DNA from: a virus
DNA: 33,960 nucleotides
IMG/VR virus record: IMGVR_UViG_3300025133_000369
Span: 1 to 33,960 of that record
Strand: one strand, 5' to 3'
A model generated the notes under the pieces. It was not told the DNA's origin, searched no databases, and saw only the letters and a list, made by a program, of their open reading frames with translations. Position numbers and translations under genes: made by a program. Positions 1 through 9,039 of the stretch are shown here, piece by piece. Every line of letters starts with the position of its first letter. Positions within the stretch are counted from its first letter, which is position 1.

Positions 1-763
1 GATAGCCATGTTCATCAACGACAAAAGAAGCTTTTGCTTTCGGGCGTGTCAGCCAAATGCGCAAAGAATAAGCATAGATCATAGCTTTTCCGCCGGGCGT
101 CATATATGGCGTAGTCATCGCTTCAGATGGCGAACGAGTGATATTCGTTTTTAACTGATTGAGCACTAAAAATGCTGATTGACTATTAGCTAAAGGAATG
201 GTCAACTTGGACATCGCCTTTGCTAAAATTCTTGGCTTTACAGCCATTGATGATTGCGGGTTAAAGTCACCTTCCAAATCTGAAACAGAAGGAGTGAGAG
301 CCAAGCTGTCCCAAATAAACAAAAACTGACTGTCCGTAGACTTTAGTAGTTCTTCCATTGTCTCCATGACAAATTCTACTGATGTCGCTTGGATATAAAG
401 AATTTTTGATGCGTCGCAACCGGCCTTCTCTAAAAAAGTAAAGTCTAGCGAGGATTCTGAATCAAAATAAACTACGTCAATACCCATTTTTTGAGCATTT
501 CCAGCTATTTGGGCAGCCATATACGATTTACCACTAGCTTCAAGGCCAGCGATTTCGGTTACTTTTCCCACTGGGATTCCAGCTACTTTGCCTCTACAAA
601 CTATACTATCTAGCCAGCGTGAGCCTGTAGGTATCCATTGTTTAACTATAGTTGGATTGTTTTCATTGGCTAAGTCAACTGCTACTTGTTGCCCAGCTTT
701 TTTATTTATTAGTTTTCTCATCTGATCGATCGATAGGCGACCGGCTTTTTCTTTTTTAGCCAT
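1..763 (-). CDS. uvsX: RecA/UvsX-like recombinase, 3' end outside window
   Basis: Strand-exchange ATPase for homologous recombination and recombination-dependent replication. The visible 254 residues have Walker A GLEASGKS (about 73-80), a catalytic-glutamate region YFDSES (E103), Walker B FLFIWDS (147-153) and the switch segment LNQLKTNI (201-208), equivalent to the glutamine-containing INQIR-type motif of RecA. These motifs look closer to bacterial RecA than to T4 UvsX, although the context is T4-like. The ATG at 761-763 overlaps the stop of the upstream gene by 8 nt, and an AAGGAG lies about 11 nt before it inside that gene. The reading frame is open to base 1, so the C-terminal part, including part of the DNA-binding region, is missing here. 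It works with the gp32-like protein and the polymerase encoded just upstream. Confidence 0.93.
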   Translation of the reverse strand, partial: MAKKEKAGRLSIDQMRKLINKKAGQQVAVDLANENNPTIVKQWIPTGSRWLDSIVCRGKVAGIPVGKVTEIAGLEASGKSYMAAQIAGNAQKMGIDVVYFDSESSLDFTFLEKAGCDASKILYIQATSVEFVMETMEELLKSTDSQFLFIWDSLALTPSVSDLEGDFNPQSSMAVKPRILAKAMSKLTIPLANSQSAFLVLNQLKTNITRSPSEAMTTPYMTPGGKAMIYAYSLRIWLTRPKAKASFVVDEHGY

Positions 764-1432: not shown

Positions 1433-2182
1433 TTAACCTAGCAGTTCAGAAAAAGCTTTATCAACCGGACTTTCGTTCGTATTTGTTGATGTAGCAGAAT
1501 CTACGCTAGTCGTAAAAGATGCCTCTTCGGAATTCAAGAAATTATCTAAAATTTCCTTAACTTCCACTGAAGTTTTCCGGGAAGAAGAGAATACTTCGTC
1601 AAAGTCAGGGACCGAGCCCATCATTGACGCAGCAGTGGCACTATCCTTGTGAAGAGGAGAAGACTTACGGCGAGGCGTAATCTTCGTCTCCGGAAAGGAT
1701 GCACCGGCTGGCTTTGTATAAGTGACAACCAAATCCGTACCGGTTTCAGCATCAGTAATGTCTCCGTATTCAGGATTCAAAACCAACCCCAGAAGCGTTT
1801 CATAAGCACGTTTACCGAAGCCCCAGACTTTTACGCCTTCATCTTCGCGGCCACGTACCACTACTGGCGCGAAAAAACGCTGTTTTGCGCTCAACTTACG
1901 AGCCATACGCTTCGATTCCTCTGAACCGTCCTTCCACAATGCGCGGACGTACGTATCTAGAGGACAATCTTCTCCAAAATTGCGTTTTGGGGAAAGAAAG
2001 CCCGAGGCGCCGCCAACATCGTAATGGAACCAAAAATCCTTGAAAGGATCGCCATCAGCGGGTAGTACCAAACGTACAGTTTGTTCTCCCTCTTCAGGCT
2101 TCCAAAAGTTGTTGCTCGACTTGTCGCCGCGGGTCTTAAGGGTCTCCATGCGCGAACGCATTTTATTCATATCAATAGCCAT
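1433..2182 (-). CDS. gp32: gp32-like single-stranded DNA-binding protein
   Basis: Binds and protects single-stranded DNA during replication, recombination and repair, and coordinates polymerase and recombinase. At 249 residues it is a little shorter than T4 gp32 (301). The core carries the family pattern: FWKPEEGEQTVRLVLP (about 26-41), DFWFHYDVGG (49-58), SPKRNFGEDCPL (64-75) and KVWGFGKRAYETLL (118-131), followed by an OB-fold segment with DLVVTYTKPAG. The C-terminus is a Ser/Thr-rich, mildly acidic tail ending in DKAFSELLG, as expected for a protein-interaction tail. T4 gp32 holds zinc with His64 and three cysteines; here only one cysteine (C73) is present, so the zinc ribbon appears to be lost. 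AAAGGAG lies about 7 nt before the ATG. Confidence 0.88.
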   Translation of the reverse strand: MAIDMNKMRSRMETLKTRGDKSSNNFWKPEEGEQTVRLVLPADGDPFKDFWFHYDVGGASGFLSPKRNFGEDCPLDTYVRALWKDGSEESKRMARKLSAKQRFFAPVVVRGREDEGVKVWGFGKRAYETLLGLVLNPEYGDITDAETGTDLVVTYTKPAGASFPETKITPRRKSSPLHKDSATAASMMGSVPDFDEVFSSSRKTSVEVKEILDNFLNSEEASFTTSVDSATSTNTNESPVDKAFSELLG

Positions 2183-2231: not shown

Positions 2232-3080
2232 TTAGAGTGCTAGTTGTTGTATCAAAGTACTACTTTTTTCACAATAAGCAATTAGCTCATCGTAATCGGT
2301 TGAAAAAACCGAATAGGTTATTTTCATTCTATCATGTTCAATATTAGATTTTAAGTTTAATTGTATTGCCTCCATCAATGTTTCATCTTCCTCTAATCTT
2401 TTTTTTGGAACTCCATAATAATAATTTTTTTCTCTTGGAATGTCAAGAGAAAAGAACAATTTTTCTTCATTATTTTCCACATCCAATATGCCTAGTGTAC
2501 TAACGCGAGCAGTAGGGTACCTATTAGTCGTCGTCGTGAGAACCGGTTTTGAATGGTCAAATACATTAATCATGTGGTATGTGGAAGTTATCAATGTGTT
2601 TAAAGAATCTTTGTGTTTCATTATTGGTACTGGGCCTATTATATCAGAAATCTTTTGATTGTCAAGTAAATAAACTCTTTTAAATAAGCCGGAGCGCGCG
2701 TATTCTTGGAACACGTTGAAAAGCAAGTTGTTTTGATATGCTTTGTCTCCAACTAACTCTATTCTTTCTGGAATAATATATATGACTGTAATGTTAGTGT
2801 GGTCTTTGATTTTAGATAAAATAGATAAAGCAGCGCCAGACACCATGCCACAACTGGTGATAAATAATGTTTCGGACATCACCCCCTCTTGCAAATACTT
2901 TACTATGCCACGTGGCAAGTTTTCTTCATACAGTTCTGGGGATGCCTGACGCTTAAGACCAAAAGAAGTCTTGGTCTTTTTTAATCCTTCATCTAACTTA
3001 ATTATTTTATATTGTGGATATTGTTTAAATTGGTCAGCAATATTACATCCTGCTTGACCTAAACCTATTACGGTTTGCAT
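2232..3080 (-). CDS. Divergent tubulin/FtsZ-like GTPase-fold protein
   Basis: A 282-residue protein that reads as a divergent tubulin/FtsZ superfamily member. The N-terminus VIGLGQAGCNIADQF (4-18) matches the first beta strand and T1 loop of FtsZ (IIGVGGAGCNAV-like). FITSCGMVSGAALSI (73-87) sits where FtsZ and tubulin have the GGGTGSG signature loop and keeps only part of it. It is followed by VIYIIPERIELVGDKAYQN (99-117), similar to the FtsZ segment after the signature loop, and VYLLDNQKIS (136-145), like the strand and Asn-containing loop near the nucleotide. The long H7-like helix (159-174) is followed by no clear NxDxxD/E T7 catalytic motif, so GTP hydrolysis may be weak or absent. It starts 10 nt after the polymerase stop with GAGGA as ribosome binding site. 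Homology is inferred by eye; I am fairly confident of the fold, less of filament formation. Confidence 0.72.
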   Translation of the reverse strand: MQTVIGLGQAGCNIADQFKQYPQYKIIKLDEGLKKTKTSFGLKRQASPELYEENLPRGIVKYLQEGVMSETLFITSCGMVSGAALSILSKIKDHTNITVIYIIPERIELVGDKAYQNNLLFNVFQEYARSGLFKRVYLLDNQKISDIIGPVPIMKHKDSLNTLITSTYHMINVFDHSKPVLTTTTNRYPTARVSTLGILDVENNEEKLFFSLDIPREKNYYYGVPKKRLEEDETLMEAIQLNLKSNIEHDRMKITYSVFSTDYDELIAYCEKSSTLIQQLAL

Positions 3081-3090
3081 ATTTTCCTCG

Positions 3091-4278
3091 TTATTTGATA
3101 TATAGGCTTTTCATATCTGCCCAGTTTTTACCGCCGAGACAATTAACCTTAAATTTTCCAAATCTAGTATTACTAAATAGCTCTTTAATCTCATTAAACT
3201 CATATTCTTGTTCGGTGTGCAAATCAATCATTATACTGTCATGATTGCAAAATTTAATAAAACTTTTTTTATCTTGAAGGTAATTCCACACCTTATACAT
3301 TTGCTCAAATACTAAATCGGCTGCTGTTGATTGTACGAGATAGTTTACAGCATGATCTTCATCACACTCTATTTCTCGTCCATATGGGGTAATTACTTTA
3401 TTTTGCTTATAATACAAAGTTTTGAGTTTTTCCCGGTCGTAAATCTTACTAACGTTGTCATCCTTGTTGTTGGGGTTGTAAAGCCATGCAAATATACGTT
3501 TTTTAGCATTATCGCGTGATTTTGCCCTAGTAAAGACATGTTTGAGGTTCCAATCATGGAGATCTTCTTCTGGCTGCTCTTGTCCTAGGAGCGCTAGCGC
3601 TGTGCGTAACTCGCATGCGTTATAGTCCATTTCAAAAAGCCATCTGTTTGTCGGCGTTAATACATTCCTATATTTTTTAGCCAATGTCATGATAGGGAAA
3701 GAACCTTTTTTTGTGCTTAAGCGTCCTGTAACAGTTTTATTTATGCTATAATCGATTGTTAAGTTGTTTTTGCTAAGAGTCCTGTAGATGTTTTTGTCCT
3801 GCACCGTAAGGCGTGGGCAATTATCTAAATTGATTGATAGTCTGTGTTGTTTTATATCAGCGGCAACCTTTGTAATTTTCAAAAGCTGTTCGTAATTGTC
3901 TGGTTTGTTGTAATTCTGAAATATATTCTCGCAAATCGTATTTTTTATTTCGGCCCACTGCTTGAGGAGATGCCTAGGCATAAGATCATATATACATATC
4001 TCCTCTAGATTCAAACCCACGTTTTGTGAACTCTTTAAAACTGCTTTAATTCTTTTTTGAATTGATTCGAATTCCGATTTTTTTCCAACGGGACACAATT
4101 CGGATAACGTCTGCTGTGAAGATAGCGCGTAGATTGATGCATATTCAATGTCTTTGCCTCTTAAGTGGTTGGCGTACGCCCAGGTTTTTGTGCAGCCCGG
4201 GCTGACGGAATCATAAAATCTACCATTTTTATAAACCATGGTACATATTTCTTTGTCATCAAACGTCTGAAAGATCAT
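3091..4278 (-). CDS. Short family A DNA polymerase without exonuclease domain
   Basis: DNA polymerase of the PolI/T7 type. TGRLS (184-188), motif A LFEMDYNACELRTAL (214-228, catalytic D218), motif B RxxxKxxxFxxxY (R255, K259, F263, Y267, then N instead of the usual G), QSTAADLV (316-323) and motif C CNHDSIMI (344-351, catalytic D347) appear in the correct order. Motif C has HDS instead of HDE. At 395 residues it is much shorter than PolI or T7 gp5. The first 130 residues show no DEDD 3'-5' exonuclease motifs, so proofreading, if any, must come from another protein. T4-like phages normally encode a family B polymerase (gp43), so this is unusual. The ATG overlaps the stop of the preceding structural gene as ATGA. 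Confidence 0.87.
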   Translation of the reverse strand: MIFQTFDDKEICTMVYKNGRFYDSVSPGCTKTWAYANHLRGKDIEYASIYALSSQQTLSELCPVGKKSEFESIQKRIKAVLKSSQNVGLNLEEICIYDLMPRHLLKQWAEIKNTICENIFQNYNKPDNYEQLLKITKVAADIKQHRLSINLDNCPRLTVQDKNIYRTLSKNNLTIDYSINKTVTGRLSTKKGSFPIMTLAKKYRNVLTPTNRWLFEMDYNACELRTALALLGQEQPEEDLHDWNLKHVFTRAKSRDNAKKRIFAWLYNPNNKDDNVSKIYDREKLKTLYYKQNKVITPYGREIECDEDHAVNYLVQSTAADLVFEQMYKVWNYLQDKKSFIKFCNHDSIMIDLHTEQEYEFNEIKELFSNTRFGKFKVNCLGGKNWADMKSLYIK

Positions 4279-5705
4279 TTAAACCCTGTGTAAAATTCTG
4301 ATACTGATTTTGCATATTTATATTGTTGGTTCTTTTTTTCATCAGCAGTTGGCTGAGTCTTTTCATATAACAGTTTATTAAAAATATCTTTTTCTGTCAA
4401 GTCTTTATTGTGGGAAGTCTGCCATAGCGGCAGACCTGTGGCGGGGTCGACGATTCTAGAAGGAGAATAGAAGGTTTCAAGCTTTGTTAAAGCATGGAAT
4501 GTCTGATTCTCTTTTTTCTTCAATAAATCATATCTCTTTCGAAATCGCCTGTATTTAGAATCGCAGTCTGCAGCAAATTCATATTTAAGAATCTTCTCCA
4601 TTATTGTTAGAAAATATTCGTTTACGTAATGAGATGGTATATTAATTTCTTTTTGCAATGCAATATTAATATTTGGATCTCTGGTTAAGGATGCAGTGGT
4701 AATTGATTTGAAACTACCAATTTTTATAATTGGATCCGGCGTATATACAATATTCTTTTTGTCATTTACGTATTCTTGCCATCCATAGACTAATACCGTT
4801 TTTAAAAGGGAATATGACCATATTATAGCTTTATCATAATACTTTTCAAAAAGATACTCCAGATTGGGAACGTTGGGATTATTGCCGGTTGGTATCGCAT
4901 ATTGTGATAAATAGCCTTCTAATATGACTTCTTTTCCAGATTTAAGCTTCGAAACAAAGCCGCGCATTGGTTTAGAATTCAAATCCGCTATCAATTGCCA
5001 TGGCGCGTTGAGATTGACTCTAAACCCAAAGTTAGCAGCTGCTTGGGCATAATGCACAAAAGAAGAATCTGTGTACTGTACCCATTTTAAGTAATCGGCA
5101 TCGTGATTTGACTTCATAAACTCAAAGGATAGGCCACTCGTCATAATATTGGTTTTTTTATCTGTATAAAAAGAATAAAATGATATATTCTGATGCGCTA
5201 ATTCGCTCATATCAATAAAACCTTGAACCCAAGACTTTATATCTGCAATAATATTTTCAGATTGTAATAACGTTGAATTGTAATTTTTAATCATATTGGA
5301 AATGTAATCAACATATGATTGCAAACTGTTAGTATATCCAGTGGCGACCTTGAAATCTGCAAATAAGTTTGCAGGAGTGTTCTTTCCTGCGGCGGTGGCC
5401 TTATTCATAAAAAATTGAAAATCTCTGAGCGCGTCGTATACAAAATCAAAAGCGATTGCCTTGTCGCCCAAAGCGAACTTCATTTTTGTTGGCTTGGGGA
5501 CATAAAATATTCCAGATTGATTTGTTTTGCCATAGAAAGGAGTGTCGTACCATAAATCAATATAGTTTTTATTATCAGCCGCATAATGATAAGGCGCTGA
5601 ATATTTAAAATTCGCTCTTTGGTGATATATTGCACTAGTAACTAGCGAGCTATTTGCAACATATGGGATTGGTGAATATATAGGCTGTTCTGAGTTTGTC
5701 GCCAT
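4275..5705 (-). CDS. Putative virion structural protein (baseplate region)
   Basis: A 476-residue protein, rich in aromatic residues, Asn and Lys, without signal peptide or membrane segment. The segment FGFRVNLNAPWQLIADLNSKP (about 231-251) resembles a conserved block I associate with structural proteins of large myoviruses. I cannot assign a T4 counterpart. It follows the 1099-residue structural gene and ends the tail module, so a baseplate or virion-associated role is inferred from position. The ATG has no clear Shine-Dalgarno sequence; instead an ACTAATTA box lies 6 nt upstream. Its stop overlaps the polymerase start by 4 nt. Confidence 0.72.
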   Translation of the reverse strand: MATNSEQPIYSPIPYVANSSLVTSAIYHQRANFKYSAPYHYAADNKNYIDLWYDTPFYGKTNQSGIFYVPKPTKMKFALGDKAIAFDFVYDALRDFQFFMNKATAAGKNTPANLFADFKVATGYTNSLQSYVDYISNMIKNYNSTLLQSENIIADIKSWVQGFIDMSELAHQNISFYSFYTDKKTNIMTSGLSFEFMKSNHDADYLKWVQYTDSSFVHYAQAAANFGFRVNLNAPWQLIADLNSKPMRGFVSKLKSGKEVILEGYLSQYAIPTGNNPNVPNLEYLFEKYYDKAIIWSYSLLKTVLVYGWQEYVNDKKNIVYTPDPIIKIGSFKSITTASLTRDPNINIALQKEINIPSHYVNEYFLTIMEKILKYEFAADCDSKYRRFRKRYDLLKKKENQTFHALTKLETFYSPSRIVDPATGLPLWQTSHNKDLTEKDIFNKLLYEKTQPTADEKKNQQYKYAKSVSEFYTGFK

Positions 5706-5739: not shown

Positions 5740-8700
5740 TCAGGTAGGCGGAAGTAACGAGCCACTATTAATAGCATCAACCAATTTTTCTGCCTCTTCG
5801 ACAGTTGTTTCGCGGAGCGTTTCATATGACTTCATCGTGGTTTTCACGGCATCTATTCTTGTTCTAATCATTTCAAGTGTAATTACTGATGCGCCTCCAG
5901 TCGATACAGTGTGAACAGGGCTGCCGCCAGCGGCATTGAGCGCTGCTACATCTGAGTCTGAGAGTTGAATTATAGATTCAATATTTGTAGTAAATTTTTC
6001 CGCTGACCAATTATAGGATATTTTTTTAATTCCATAATACCCGTTTGCGGCGAACTGTCGCGAATTTTGGTGCTCGGCCGTCACAAAAGGTCGCAAATCT
6101 ACATATATTAGATTACCCAACTCAAACATTGGATATCCTAGAGTTTCGATATTAGCTTGAAAAATTACTGGCGCCCAACTACCTTGGTTTTCAGCGTTAC
6201 CTTCGGCATTTGCTCTTTCTGACGATCTACCAGCATTAAAATAGACCGCGGTTTTTGTAGAAGGATCAGCAATATCTATCACTTTCACTTTCATTGTCAT
6301 GCCGCGGCTTAATCCGCCTAAATAAAAATGATATATTCCATGCATCATATTAGCATCGTATGTTCCGGAGCGAGAGGCGCCAGCGCTATTGGTTGTGATT
6401 TCCTCCTGTGCTAAATCGCTAGCTACGTTTTTTGAACCATAAATAAAAATATGTGTACTTCCCGGGAAGGTATCAGTGGGTTCATCTTCGTATAAGGCCA
6501 TCCTTATTTTTGGAGAGACAAAATCCTGCATATGAGCTTCGCGGGAACACGAAGTAAATGAATTATCAAAAAATTTGCGTATTAAACCTTGGCAAAGGTC
6601 CAAATAAGAATAAAACGATCTTTCTTTACCGATAACTTCCCTAGCAAAAAAGTCGTTTAATCGCTTCAGGGATATCGGATAATAATATAATCGAAGATCC
6701 TTAACTGGTAGGTTTGTGAACGGCGTATTGTAACTTAAGAATCCTAAATCAGTATAAAAGCGCCGATTGTTGTTTGATTTAATGATGCGATCGATAACAG
6801 TATCATTGGGAATCGTGCTAGCGGTATTGGCGGGATCGGCTAGGGGGCGCAAATCTGCCGGAATGGTTAATACTGCAGTGAGCAAGTCCCCTAAGAAAAT
6901 AAACGGTATTATTTGATATTCTTCTAAATCTTTGTCTGTAAATTGCTTTGCTTCTTCGTATTTACCAGCAGACAGACGGCGCGTGTCACCCGCAATATCG
7001 ACCCACTTCTCTTTTATTTTAGATGGTGTTTTGACGTTTAAATAATCGTTGGGCTTCATACCGTTTATTAAACTAAGCATTCGGGTTTTATTTGGATCGA
7101 TTGAAGCTTCTTTAATATCGACTCGCTTGCTCTTTTCAATATATATGTTGTAAACTTTCATTTTTGTTAATAGTTGCTTAGCTATAAATTTTAAGCTTTG
7201 ATATCTGGCAGTATACGCTGCCTTCATTGCAGTAGATACGGCTCCCCTATAAACATTAGTTAAAGAGTCTTCTAATGCTTTAAGATCAGCTGCTTGTTTG
7301 TCTACGACGGCCTTGTTTTGTGCGGCGAAGTCGCCCACGGCTGTTCCCCCAGAAGATAAATAATCAGTGTATTCGTTGAACGTAGCTTTCAAATCGCGAA
7401 AAAAATTGTGTTGGCGCATGATGTCATGCGCAGAGCTAGTTGTAACGTGCGGGAACAGGTTGCCGACGGGTTGGTTCATTTGGGCGGCGCCGCTCGGTGA
7501 GCCGCCGGGGGTGACTGAGGTACGTATGATTTGGTTCATTCCTACATTACTGACGCCGGTGCCATCAAAGAATCCTGCCAACTTGAGCCTAAACTGTGCT
7601 GTCGCGTCGTTCTTTTCAGATATTGACATACTAGTGGCCGCGATTCTGGCCAGAAATTCGCTCTCAAACTGGGTTCTTAAGGTGGTTAATCGGTTCGTTG
7701 CCACTTGAGCGCTCATAATCTGGTATGGGAGCATGGGGCTGACGGGCCCGCCGTGGCCCGGGACATGCGGTGGATAGACGCGTCCGCCGACCGGTATTTC
7801 TTTTAGCGGAAACATTGCGCTGCCTGCGATCCAGCCGGTCGTCACCTTCGCGAAGAATTGATTCGACTCCGCTAAAAGAAGTTCACGAAAGATATTTGTA
7901 GCTAAATTTTTAGCCAATTGCTCCTTTATTACGGCATGCAGCCTATCGGCGCGCTGTCTCGCCGTTGCGTTTATGCTTCCTGTGTTGTGCTTTATTTCTT
8001 CAAATACTGACTTTGCTAGCTGTAATATGTTTGAATTTGCGTTGTTAGCCATATCCACAATATGGCCGCGGTATTGTGCGTTAACTATTATAGAGCCATC
8101 ATCTTTTAAGTCAAACGTATATTTAATCAAATTGGTTTTTACGCGCATTCTAAGTCTATCCAAATTTAGTCTCCCTTTGAGATCTGGATTAGAAGTGTCC
8201 CAACCTAAGTTGAATTCAATGTATCTATAAAGTTTAGAAGCAGCGAGATAATTGCCAACTTGCAAAAGCTGTGTATATGGCTCTTCTACTAGTTTACGTA
8301 AATCTTGAAATATATATGTCGCATTCACCAAAACCATATTTCTAGTTAGTGAATCTACACCTTCGTGAGTTATCGTTACTGTTTGTAAACCCGCCAAATT
8401 TTTAATAGCTGCTGGTTTTGTCAAATAACTTAAGTCGTTCTCATTCTGATTAAATGGGATTGTTTGCGAATATGGTGTGGTCGGGTCGTCCCCTGCTTCT
8501 TGTTCTTTGAGTTTGCCGTTTTCTTGATAATATGCAACGCCCACATCGCAAAAATGAGATATTTGAGCTTTTTCTGCGGGAGTAATTTCGAAAAAAGGAT
8601 GAAAGTAATTGATATCTTCTACCTTCGGCCGCGTGTTATGTCCAGCGCCTGGGATGGAAGGAGAACGCATGCTTGATGTCCAATCGCCTTTCCAGTTTAC

Positions 8701-9039
8701 CCAACCGCCAAAAGATTGTAATTTGATATATTCAAAATTGCTTTGCAGCTGCCACATGGTACCCCACATACTGTTGTCCGTTGCATTGTTAATATTTCCA
8801 TACGTCCATCTACCATCTTTATAGGACGCATACGTAAAAATTGCGGAGGTGCCGTCGCCGCCTACTTGTCTGACTATTTTTTTCTTAGTAAAATAAGAAT
8901 CTTGCATAAATTGAGCATTATTATTGGATTGGATGAAGTAATCATATATTTCCTTAGCTTTTTCTATTAAAAAGCACTGATCGGAAACCATTGGATTCAT
9001 GAGCGATTCGTTATTTCTTACAGCTTGCGGTGTTGTCAT
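5740..9039 (-). CDS. Large virion protein, probable baseplate hub/structural protein
   Basis: A 1099-residue structural protein. The C-terminal part reads LGYPMFELGNLIYVDLRPF (about 970-990) and then ANGYYGIKKISYNWSAEKFTT (about 1010-1030), a pattern of beta strands seen in phage tail hub (gpD/gp27-like) modules and in large marine myovirus structural proteins. A central block with YYYPISLKRLNDFFAREVIGK (about 795-815) and FFDNSF also looks conserved in such proteins. The middle (about 570-650) is predicted helical and Ala/Lys-rich. There is no membrane segment. AAAGGT precedes the ATG at 9039. It sits between the gp53-like wedge gene and the 476-aa gene, which supports a baseplate role. I cannot say whether it contains a lysozyme-like domain; I see none. 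Confidence 0.75.
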   Translation of the reverse strand: MTTPQAVRNNESLMNPMVSDQCFLIEKAKEIYDYFIQSNNNAQFMQDSYFTKKKIVRQVGGDGTSAIFTYASYKDGRWTYGNINNATDNSMWGTMWQLQSNFEYIKLQSFGGWVNWKGDWTSSMRSPSIPGAGHNTRPKVEDINYFHPFFEITPAEKAQISHFCDVGVAYYQENGKLKEQEAGDDPTTPYSQTIPFNQNENDLSYLTKPAAIKNLAGLQTVTITHEGVDSLTRNMVLVNATYIFQDLRKLVEEPYTQLLQVGNYLAASKLYRYIEFNLGWDTSNPDLKGRLNLDRLRMRVKTNLIKYTFDLKDDGSIIVNAQYRGHIVDMANNANSNILQLAKSVFEEIKHNTGSINATARQRADRLHAVIKEQLAKNLATNIFRELLLAESNQFFAKVTTGWIAGSAMFPLKEIPVGGRVYPPHVPGHGGPVSPMLPYQIMSAQVATNRLTTLRTQFESEFLARIAATSMSISEKNDATAQFRLKLAGFFDGTGVSNVGMNQIIRTSVTPGGSPSGAAQMNQPVGNLFPHVTTSSAHDIMRQHNFFRDLKATFNEYTDYLSSGGTAVGDFAAQNKAVVDKQAADLKALEDSLTNVYRGAVSTAMKAAYTARYQSLKFIAKQLLTKMKVYNIYIEKSKRVDIKEASIDPNKTRMLSLINGMKPNDYLNVKTPSKIKEKWVDIAGDTRRLSAGKYEEAKQFTDKDLEEYQIIPFIFLGDLLTAVLTIPADLRPLADPANTASTIPNDTVIDRIIKSNNNRRFYTDLGFLSYNTPFTNLPVKDLRLYYYPISLKRLNDFFAREVIGKERSFYSYLDLCQGLIRKFFDNSFTSCSREAHMQDFVSPKIRMALYEDEPTDTFPGSTHIFIYGSKNVASDLAQEEITTNSAGASRSGTYDANMMHGIYHFYLGGLSRGMTMKVKVIDIADPSTKTAVYFNAGRSSERANAEGNAENQGSWAPVIFQANIETLGYPMFELGNLIYVDLRPFVTAEHQNSRQFAANGYYGIKKISYNWSAEKFTTNIESIIQLSDSDVAALNAAGGSPVHTVSTGGASVITLEMIRTRIDAVKTTMKSYETLRETTVEEAEKLVDAINSGSLLPPT

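What the first reader, a model, noticed from the sequence alone, without database searches (positions are those of the whole stretch)
3091..4278. Minimal family A DNA polymerase with no exonuclease domain and altered motifs
All palm and finger motifs of PolI are present in 395 residues, but motif B ends in YN, motif C is HDS instead of HDE, and no DEDD exonuclease residues are visible. T4-like phages normally use the family B gp43. This phage may have swapped its replicase, or the gene may be an auxiliary polymerase. The neighbouring gp32-like and RecA-like genes suggest true replication use.
Basis: partly seen in the sequence, partly recalled or inferred. Interest (0 to 1): 0.72.

Follow-up and report, generated by a model that had tools for sequence, protein, structure and literature searches.

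The report
Trimmed auxiliary polymerase in marine T4-like phages
A large, mostly uncultured group of marine T4-like phages carries a stripped-down DNA polymerase that has lost its proofreading part, and it carries it together with a second, bacterial-type replicase, so this small enzyme is most likely a helper rather than the phage's main copying machine.

Summary
The ORF is real: minus strand, 395 aa, family A (PF00476 E 8e-14). All catalytic residues are retained (KF R668, D705, E710, R754, K758, F762, Y766, Q849, H881, D882). Motif B does read YN, motif C does read HDS, and there are no DEDD residues. It is no assembly artefact: about 110 IMG/VR loci encode the same full-length ~395-aa protein under purifying selection (dN/dS 0.05-0.13 where measurable). 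AlphaFold2 (pLDDT 91) gives palm, thumb, fingers and a rudimentary exonuclease domain. No gp43 occurs in 24 related records. All 10 records of at least 50 kb, and the window's nearest relatives, encode a family C DnaE 12-16 kb downstream, with an intact PHP exonuclease site. A separate FEN, DnaB, gp32-like SSB and UvsX complete a conserved module. The phage therefore swapped its replicase, but for DnaE; this gene is an accessory polymerase. It matches divPolA1 (Yutin et al. 2024) in context and architecture, but is a distinct, large, DnaE-linked branch that keeps canonical active-site residues lost in the cultured examples tested. HDS is common in phage PolA. Unexpected: the next gene encodes a divergent FtsZ/tubulin-fold protein. 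Most likely role (inferred): gap filling or Okazaki/D-loop extension beside DnaE.

The parts
3091..4278 (-). Mini family A DNA polymerase, 395 aa (divPolA1-like)
4099..4278 (-). Residues 1-60: rudiment of the 3'-5' exonuclease domain, no catalytic residues; starts with the near-invariant MIFQTFDDK (boundary approximate)
   Evidence: VIA alignment puts model residue 1 on Bst Pol I residue 316, inside its exonuclease-like domain; conservation
3718..3729 (-). TGRL motif (R186 = KF R668)
3610..3627 (-). Motif A, D218..E223 (KF D705, E710 steric gate)
3475..3516 (-). Motif B, R255-K259-F263-Y267-N268 (ends YN instead of YG)
3235..3243 (-). Motif C, H346-D347-S348 (HDS)
2232..3080 (-). Downstream neighbour, 282 aa, divergent FtsZ/tubulin fold; directly downstream of polA in nearly all loci that reach it
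1433..2182 (-). gp32-like single-strand DNA binding protein
2..763 (-). UvsX/RecA-like recombinase, cut by the contig end
4275..5705 (-). Upstream 476-aa protein of unknown function in the late/tail run; its TGA overlaps the polA ATG (ATGA), suggesting translational coupling

Best explanation
The gene encodes an active, exonuclease-less, minimal Pol I-type DNA polymerase of the divPolA1 type that works as an accessory polymerase in a phage whose main replicase is its own family C DnaE. Shown here by sequence: intact polymerase active site, atrophied exonuclease domain, fixed place in a replication module (polA - FtsZ-like - gp32-like SSB - UvsX - FEN - DnaB - RNR ... DnaE), invariable co-occurrence with DnaE where the contig is long enough, strong purifying selection. 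Inferred: DnaE copies the bulk of the genome and proofreads through its PHP domain; the mini-PolA together with the separate FEN nuclease acts like a Pol I split into two genes, filling the short gaps left after FEN removes primers or flaps, and/or extending 3' ends paired by UvsX in D-loops, on gp32-coated template. It would not need its own proofreading for such short patches.
For: Family A sequence and fold (model pLDDT 91, pTM 0.88; VIA Z 24-25 over 350-372 residues to Bst/Taq Pol I). All catalytic residues kept in 43 homologues, E710 steric gate included, so a DNA rather than RNA polymerase. Purifying selection, dN/dS 0.05-0.13 in pairs where dS is not saturated. DnaE with NTPase, fingers, PHP and HhH domains, found in 10/10 records of at least 50 kb and in the nearest relatives L002, L003, L010; its N-terminus also lies at the end of G010. 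DnaE catalytic Asp triad and PHP metal ligands all present, where E. coli has lost several PHP ligands; this fits the 'active' PHP motif HHDHEH[C/H]DH of PMC12926913. FEN in 21/24 records. Same order in 110 loci as far as each reaches. Yutin et al. 2024 reach the same 'additional DNAP, likely involved in replication' conclusion for divPolA1 (PMC11348598).
Against: No biochemistry. The window's own contig ends 3 kb downstream of polA, so its DnaE is inferred from relatives. The mini-PolA sits in the tightest replication cluster while DnaE lies farther off, which could equally mean the PolA is at the fork. No ATP-dependent ligase (PF01068) or DnaN-type clamp (PF00712) was found in 7 records, so the Okazaki picture needs host ligase and clamp; NAD ligase and T4-type clamp were not searched. 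G767->N is untested for activity.
Confidence: 0.62

Rival explanations
1. The mini-PolA is the main replicase and DnaE is the repair or auxiliary enzyme.
For: polA is embedded in the gp32-UvsX-FEN-DnaB cluster; phage PolA is often the replicase (PMC9069017); Yutin et al. [quoted passage not shown]
Against: DnaE is full length and more conserved (88% vs 67% between G001 and G002) and has a full PHP site; the PolA has no proofreading and a reduced fold for a genome of about 190 kb. In divPolA1 phages the 'regular' DNAP may be A, B or C while divPolA1 stays, as expected for an auxiliary enzyme plus an exchangeable replicase.
Confidence: 0.13
2. Division of labour at the fork: the mini-PolA makes one strand (for example the lagging strand) or hands primers over to DnaE.
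For: Obligate pairing with DnaE and vicinity of DnaB, SSB and FEN; jumbo phages of group 2.2 carry PolB plus a split PolIII for which strand sharing was proposed (PMC7824862).
Against: No direct evidence; a polymerase without proofreading would make one strand mutation-prone.
Confidence: 0.13
3. It is a specialised translesion, error-prone or recombination (D-loop) polymerase used in repair or recombination-dependent replication only.
For: Next to UvsX and gp32 homologues; loss of the exonuclease suits lesion bypass; Pol I with dead exonuclease takes part in error-prone repair in some bacteria (PMC12926913).
Against: No damage-response context seen; presence in every genome long enough to judge suggests a core function.
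Confidence: 0.09
4. It is an RNA polymerase or primase, as HDS is also the motif C of T7 RNA polymerase.
For: T7 RNAP has HDS at 811-813; RNAP function was considered for divPolA2.
Against: E710 steric gate and F762 are kept in all 43 homologues; HDS is common in ordinary phage DNA PolA.
Confidence: 0.03

Closest known systems
divPolA1 (Yutin et al. 2024, Virol J, PMC11348598): Flavobacterium phage immuto_3-5A gene 1 (MW353176) and, found here, Microcystis phage Mel-JY01 (PP395634)
   Same: Divergent PolA with dead or missing exonuclease, encoded in addition to a regular DNAP in phages of 155-190 kb; same gene order polA - SSB - RecA - 5'-3' exonuclease - DnaB - RNR; GroEL in the genome.
   Different: The window clade keeps E710, R754 and H881 where immuto and Mel-JY01 have H, Y, Y (and A for 883); it has N/D for G767; in all long records tested it is paired with DnaE (immuto pairs with a 777-aa PolA); an FtsZ-like gene follows polA, not detected at that place in immuto or Mel-JY01. 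The GOV_bin records of that paper may belong to the window clade; they are not held, so untested.
Klenow-type Pol I (E. coli, Bst, Taq)
   Same: Palm, thumb, fingers and all main catalytic residues; Z 24-25 to Bst and Taq.
   Different: About 190 residues shorter than the Bst large fragment; exonuclease domain reduced to about 60 residues; no 5' nuclease domain (a separate FEN gene instead).
Rhodothermus phage RM378 split polymerase
   Same: T4-like virion relative with polymerase and exonuclease on separate genes.
   Different: The annotated RM378 DNAP genes are family B-type (DxxSLYPSI, DTDS; exonuclease DIET) by inspection and do not match the mini-PolA profile.
Jumbo-phage group 2.2 with PolB plus split minimal PolIII (PMC7824862)
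   Same: T4-type phages with two DNA polymerases of different families.
   Different: Here no PolB; full-length DnaE with PHP plus mini-PolA.

Membership tests
Family A DNA polymerase | Palm/fingers motifs A, B, C with catalytic Asp pair and R/K/F/Y of motif B | tested here: met
   PF00476 above cut-off; D705, D882, R754, K758, F762, Y766 conserved in all 43 homologues; Pol I fold
Family A DNA polymerase | Template-directed dNTP incorporation | not testable with these tools
   needs enzymology
Proofreading (Klenow-type) Pol I | DEDD 3'-5' exonuclease residues | tested here: not met
   no counterparts of D355/E357/D424/Y497/D501; open frame too short upstream in 105 loci
divPolA1 | Divergent PolA with conserved main catalytic residues and lost exonuclease | tested here: met
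divPolA1 | Encoded besides a regular DNAP of family A, B or C | tested here: met
   DnaE in 10/10 records of at least 50 kb and in the nearest relatives; in the window itself the contig ends too early
divPolA1 | Conserved replication genes downstream (SSB, RecA, FEN, DnaB, RNR) | tested here: met
divPolA1 | Common descent with the described members | tested here: inconclusive
   mini profile hits immuto gene 1 at E 2.6e-16 (regular PolA 1e-6) and Mel-JY01 at 1e-11; grouping 95/92 but with long branches meeting and an unsettled bootstrap
T4 gp43 / family B replicase | DNA_pol_B domain in the genome | tested here: not met
   no PF00136 in the window or in 24 records
T7-type single-subunit RNA polymerase | No Glu steric gate (motif A Gly) together with HDS | tested here: not met
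   E223 invariant; T7 RNAP motif A DGSCSG and HDS
FtsZ/tubulin (neighbour gene) | FtsZ/tubulin fold | tested here: met
   pLDDT 94; Foldseek E 3e-13 to FtsZ, VIA Z 25 to CetZ over 258 residues
FtsZ/tubulin (neighbour gene) | GGGTGxG loop, GTP hydrolysis and polymerisation | tested here: inconclusive
   G-rich first loop kept, second loop reads SCGxxSG (consensus); activity not testable

The most novel reading that the evidence does not exclude
A T4-like phage lineage has rebuilt the bacterial Pol III + Pol I division of labour within its own genome: a DnaE replicase proofreading by its PHP domain, and a Pol I split into a minimal polymerase and a separate flap nuclease, the polymerase being coupled to a phage FtsZ/tubulin-like protein that organises the replication site.
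Probability: 0.15. Interest if true: 0.75.

Novelty: new member of a known kind. Interest (0 to 1): 0.42.

Why it matters
The enzyme class was described in 14 genomes in 2024. It shows that a T4-type phage can discard gp43 altogether, and it gives a natural minimal DNA polymerase of 395 aa with an intact active site that can be expressed and tested. The conserved FtsZ-fold neighbour raises the question whether these phages organise replication with a cytoskeletal protein.

Tried and rejected
RM378 as precedent for a split family A polymerase (my recollection): rejected, its annotated DNAP genes are family B-type by inspection and do not match the profile. Search of PDB sequences by phmmer: no hit. 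Host from genome collection: one hit in a WOR-3 MAG (CP070664, L149), but only about 5 kb of phage genes with an N-run at the island's upstream edge and cut-short UvsX among bacterial genes, so probably a chimeric scaffold, not used. LR796625, MK892584 and MK892766 of the divPolA1 paper are not held. Chance or spurious ORF: rejected. Assembly truncation: rejected. RNA polymerase reading of HDS: rejected as main reading. Literature searches for T4-like phages with DnaE plus PolA or with FtsZ gave little beyond the papers cited.

Full report
What is there. The ORF at 3091-4278 is read on the minus strand and gives 395 aa. It scores as a family A DNA polymerase in Pfam and PHROGs. Its start codon overlaps the stop of the upstream 476-aa gene (ATGA), and the next gene downstream starts 10 bases after its stop. 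The window is a 33,960-base IMG/VR virus record with T4-type structural genes: terminase, gp20 portal, gp23 head protein, gp21 protease, sheath and tube.

It is not an artefact. Of 110 loci examined, 105 have both frame ends inside the locus and the open frame between stops is 392-447 codons, so there is no hidden exonuclease domain upstream. dN/dS is 0.05-0.13 in pairs where dS is not saturated. No cultured phage in 50,697 records matches better than about 25-27%.

Anatomy. Aligned with E. coli Pol I, the residues R668, D705, E710, R754, K758, F762, Y766, Q849, H881 and D882 are kept in all 43 homologues; G767 is N and E883 is S (A in two); exonuclease residues have no counterpart. The AlphaFold2 model is confident (pLDDT 91, pTM 0.88), and VIA aligns its residues 1-390 with Bst Pol I 316-876 (350-372 residues, Z 24-25). 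So the first 60 or so residues most likely are the rudiment of the exonuclease domain (inference), with a near-invariant MIFQTFDDK start. HDS is found in five of the fourteen other family A polymerases that I aligned over this motif (HMO-2011, Jasmine, Molly_3, PaBG, fHe-Yen9-02); a residue other than G at 767 is rarer. The clade is monophyletic at 100/100 with a long stem.

The rest of the replisome. Two collinear records of 185.6 and 190.6 kb (G001, G002), plus smaller ones, were searched. No family B polymerase: none in the window or in 24 records. No PF01612 in 6 records and no PF00929 in 26. Instead each of the ten records of at least 50 kb has one DnaE (in G030 cut by the contig edge), and shorter records have it when they reach far enough, the nearest relatives L002 and L003 (72-73% identical polA) included; G010 ends inside its dnaE. 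DnaE has the PolIII NTPase, fingers, PHP and HhH domains. Its catalytic Asp triad is intact, and the PHP ligands H11, H13, D21, H46, E76, H131, D256 and H258 are conserved, with the SACLGG cysteine, where E. coli has R10, F44, D69 and R203. By the published motif HHDHEH[C/H]DH this PHP site counts as active (PMC12926913). A separate 5'-3' exonuclease (FEN) occurs in 21 of 24 records. The gene order polA - FtsZ-like - gp32-like - UvsX - FEN - DnaB - RNR is constant across 110 loci as far as each contig reaches. No DnaN-type clamp and no ATP-dependent ligase were found in 7 records; NAD-dependent ligase and gp45-type clamps were not searched.

Function. Because the lineage keeps a full DnaE with its own proofreading site and a trimmed PolA with none, the simplest reading is that DnaE is the replicase and the PolA is auxiliary: a Pol I split into a polymerase gene and a FEN gene. 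Which of its possible substrates is real (Okazaki gaps, D-loops, lesions) is inference from neighbours only.

Comparison with what is known. Yutin et al. 2024 (PMC11348598) describe divPolA1: a divergent PolA with a dead exonuclease, encoded in addition to a regular DNAP of family A, B or C in 14 phages of 155-190 kb, next to replication genes, and judged likely to take part in replication. I tested this against Flavobacterium phage immuto_3-5A: its gene 1 (441 aa) matches the mini-PolA profile at 2.6e-16, the gene order is the same, and its regular PolA lies beside GroES/GroEL. Microcystis phage Mel-JY01 has the same arrangement. Both of these carry H710, Y754, Y881 and A883, whereas the window clade keeps E, R and H and has S. 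The tree joins immuto to the clade at 95/92, but with a long-branch warning. I therefore place the gene as a new branch of the divPolA1 kind by architecture, context and profile similarity, with common descent probable and not proven. Whether the GOV_bin phages in that paper already belong to this branch could not be tested.

Side finding. The 282-aa gene after polA has an FtsZ/tubulin fold (pLDDT 94; Foldseek E 3e-13 to FtsZ, VIA Z 25 to CetZ). It was recovered in full from 102 loci, has no match in the phage collection, and its second nucleotide loop is degenerate (consensus). It was not detected at the same place in immuto or Mel-JY01.

Noticed in passing
window 2232-3080 (-): Divergent FtsZ/tubulin-fold protein directly downstream of polA in nearly all loci that reach it, more conserved than polA among the nearest relatives; no match in the cultured phage collection; GGGTGxG-like loop degenerate.
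   Followed up: partly
L149 8704-14063 (CP070664, WOR-3 bacterium bin77 chromosome): A roughly 5-kb island of these phage genes (orf4275, polA, FtsZ-like, SSB, cut-short UvsX) with an N-run at its upstream edge inside a bacterial MAG chromosome; looks like a chimeric scaffold.
   Followed up: partly
G001 140453-143878 and G002 121885-125319: Phage DnaE with all PHP metal ligands, about 30% identical to E. coli DnaE and no obvious canonical clamp-binding motif at the E. coli position.
   Followed up: partly
G001 159321-161734: Pair of an AAA (MoxR-like by sequence) ATPase, 92% conserved between the two large genomes, and a protein that looks VWA/metallopeptidase-like.
   Followed up: no
G001 139579-140463: 294-aa conserved protein overlapping the start of dnaE, no Pfam or PHROG match.
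   Followed up: no
window 4275-5705 and 5740-9039 (-): Fast-evolving proteins of unknown function upstream of polA, only about 21-26% identical to their syntenic counterparts in G001/G002.
   Followed up: no
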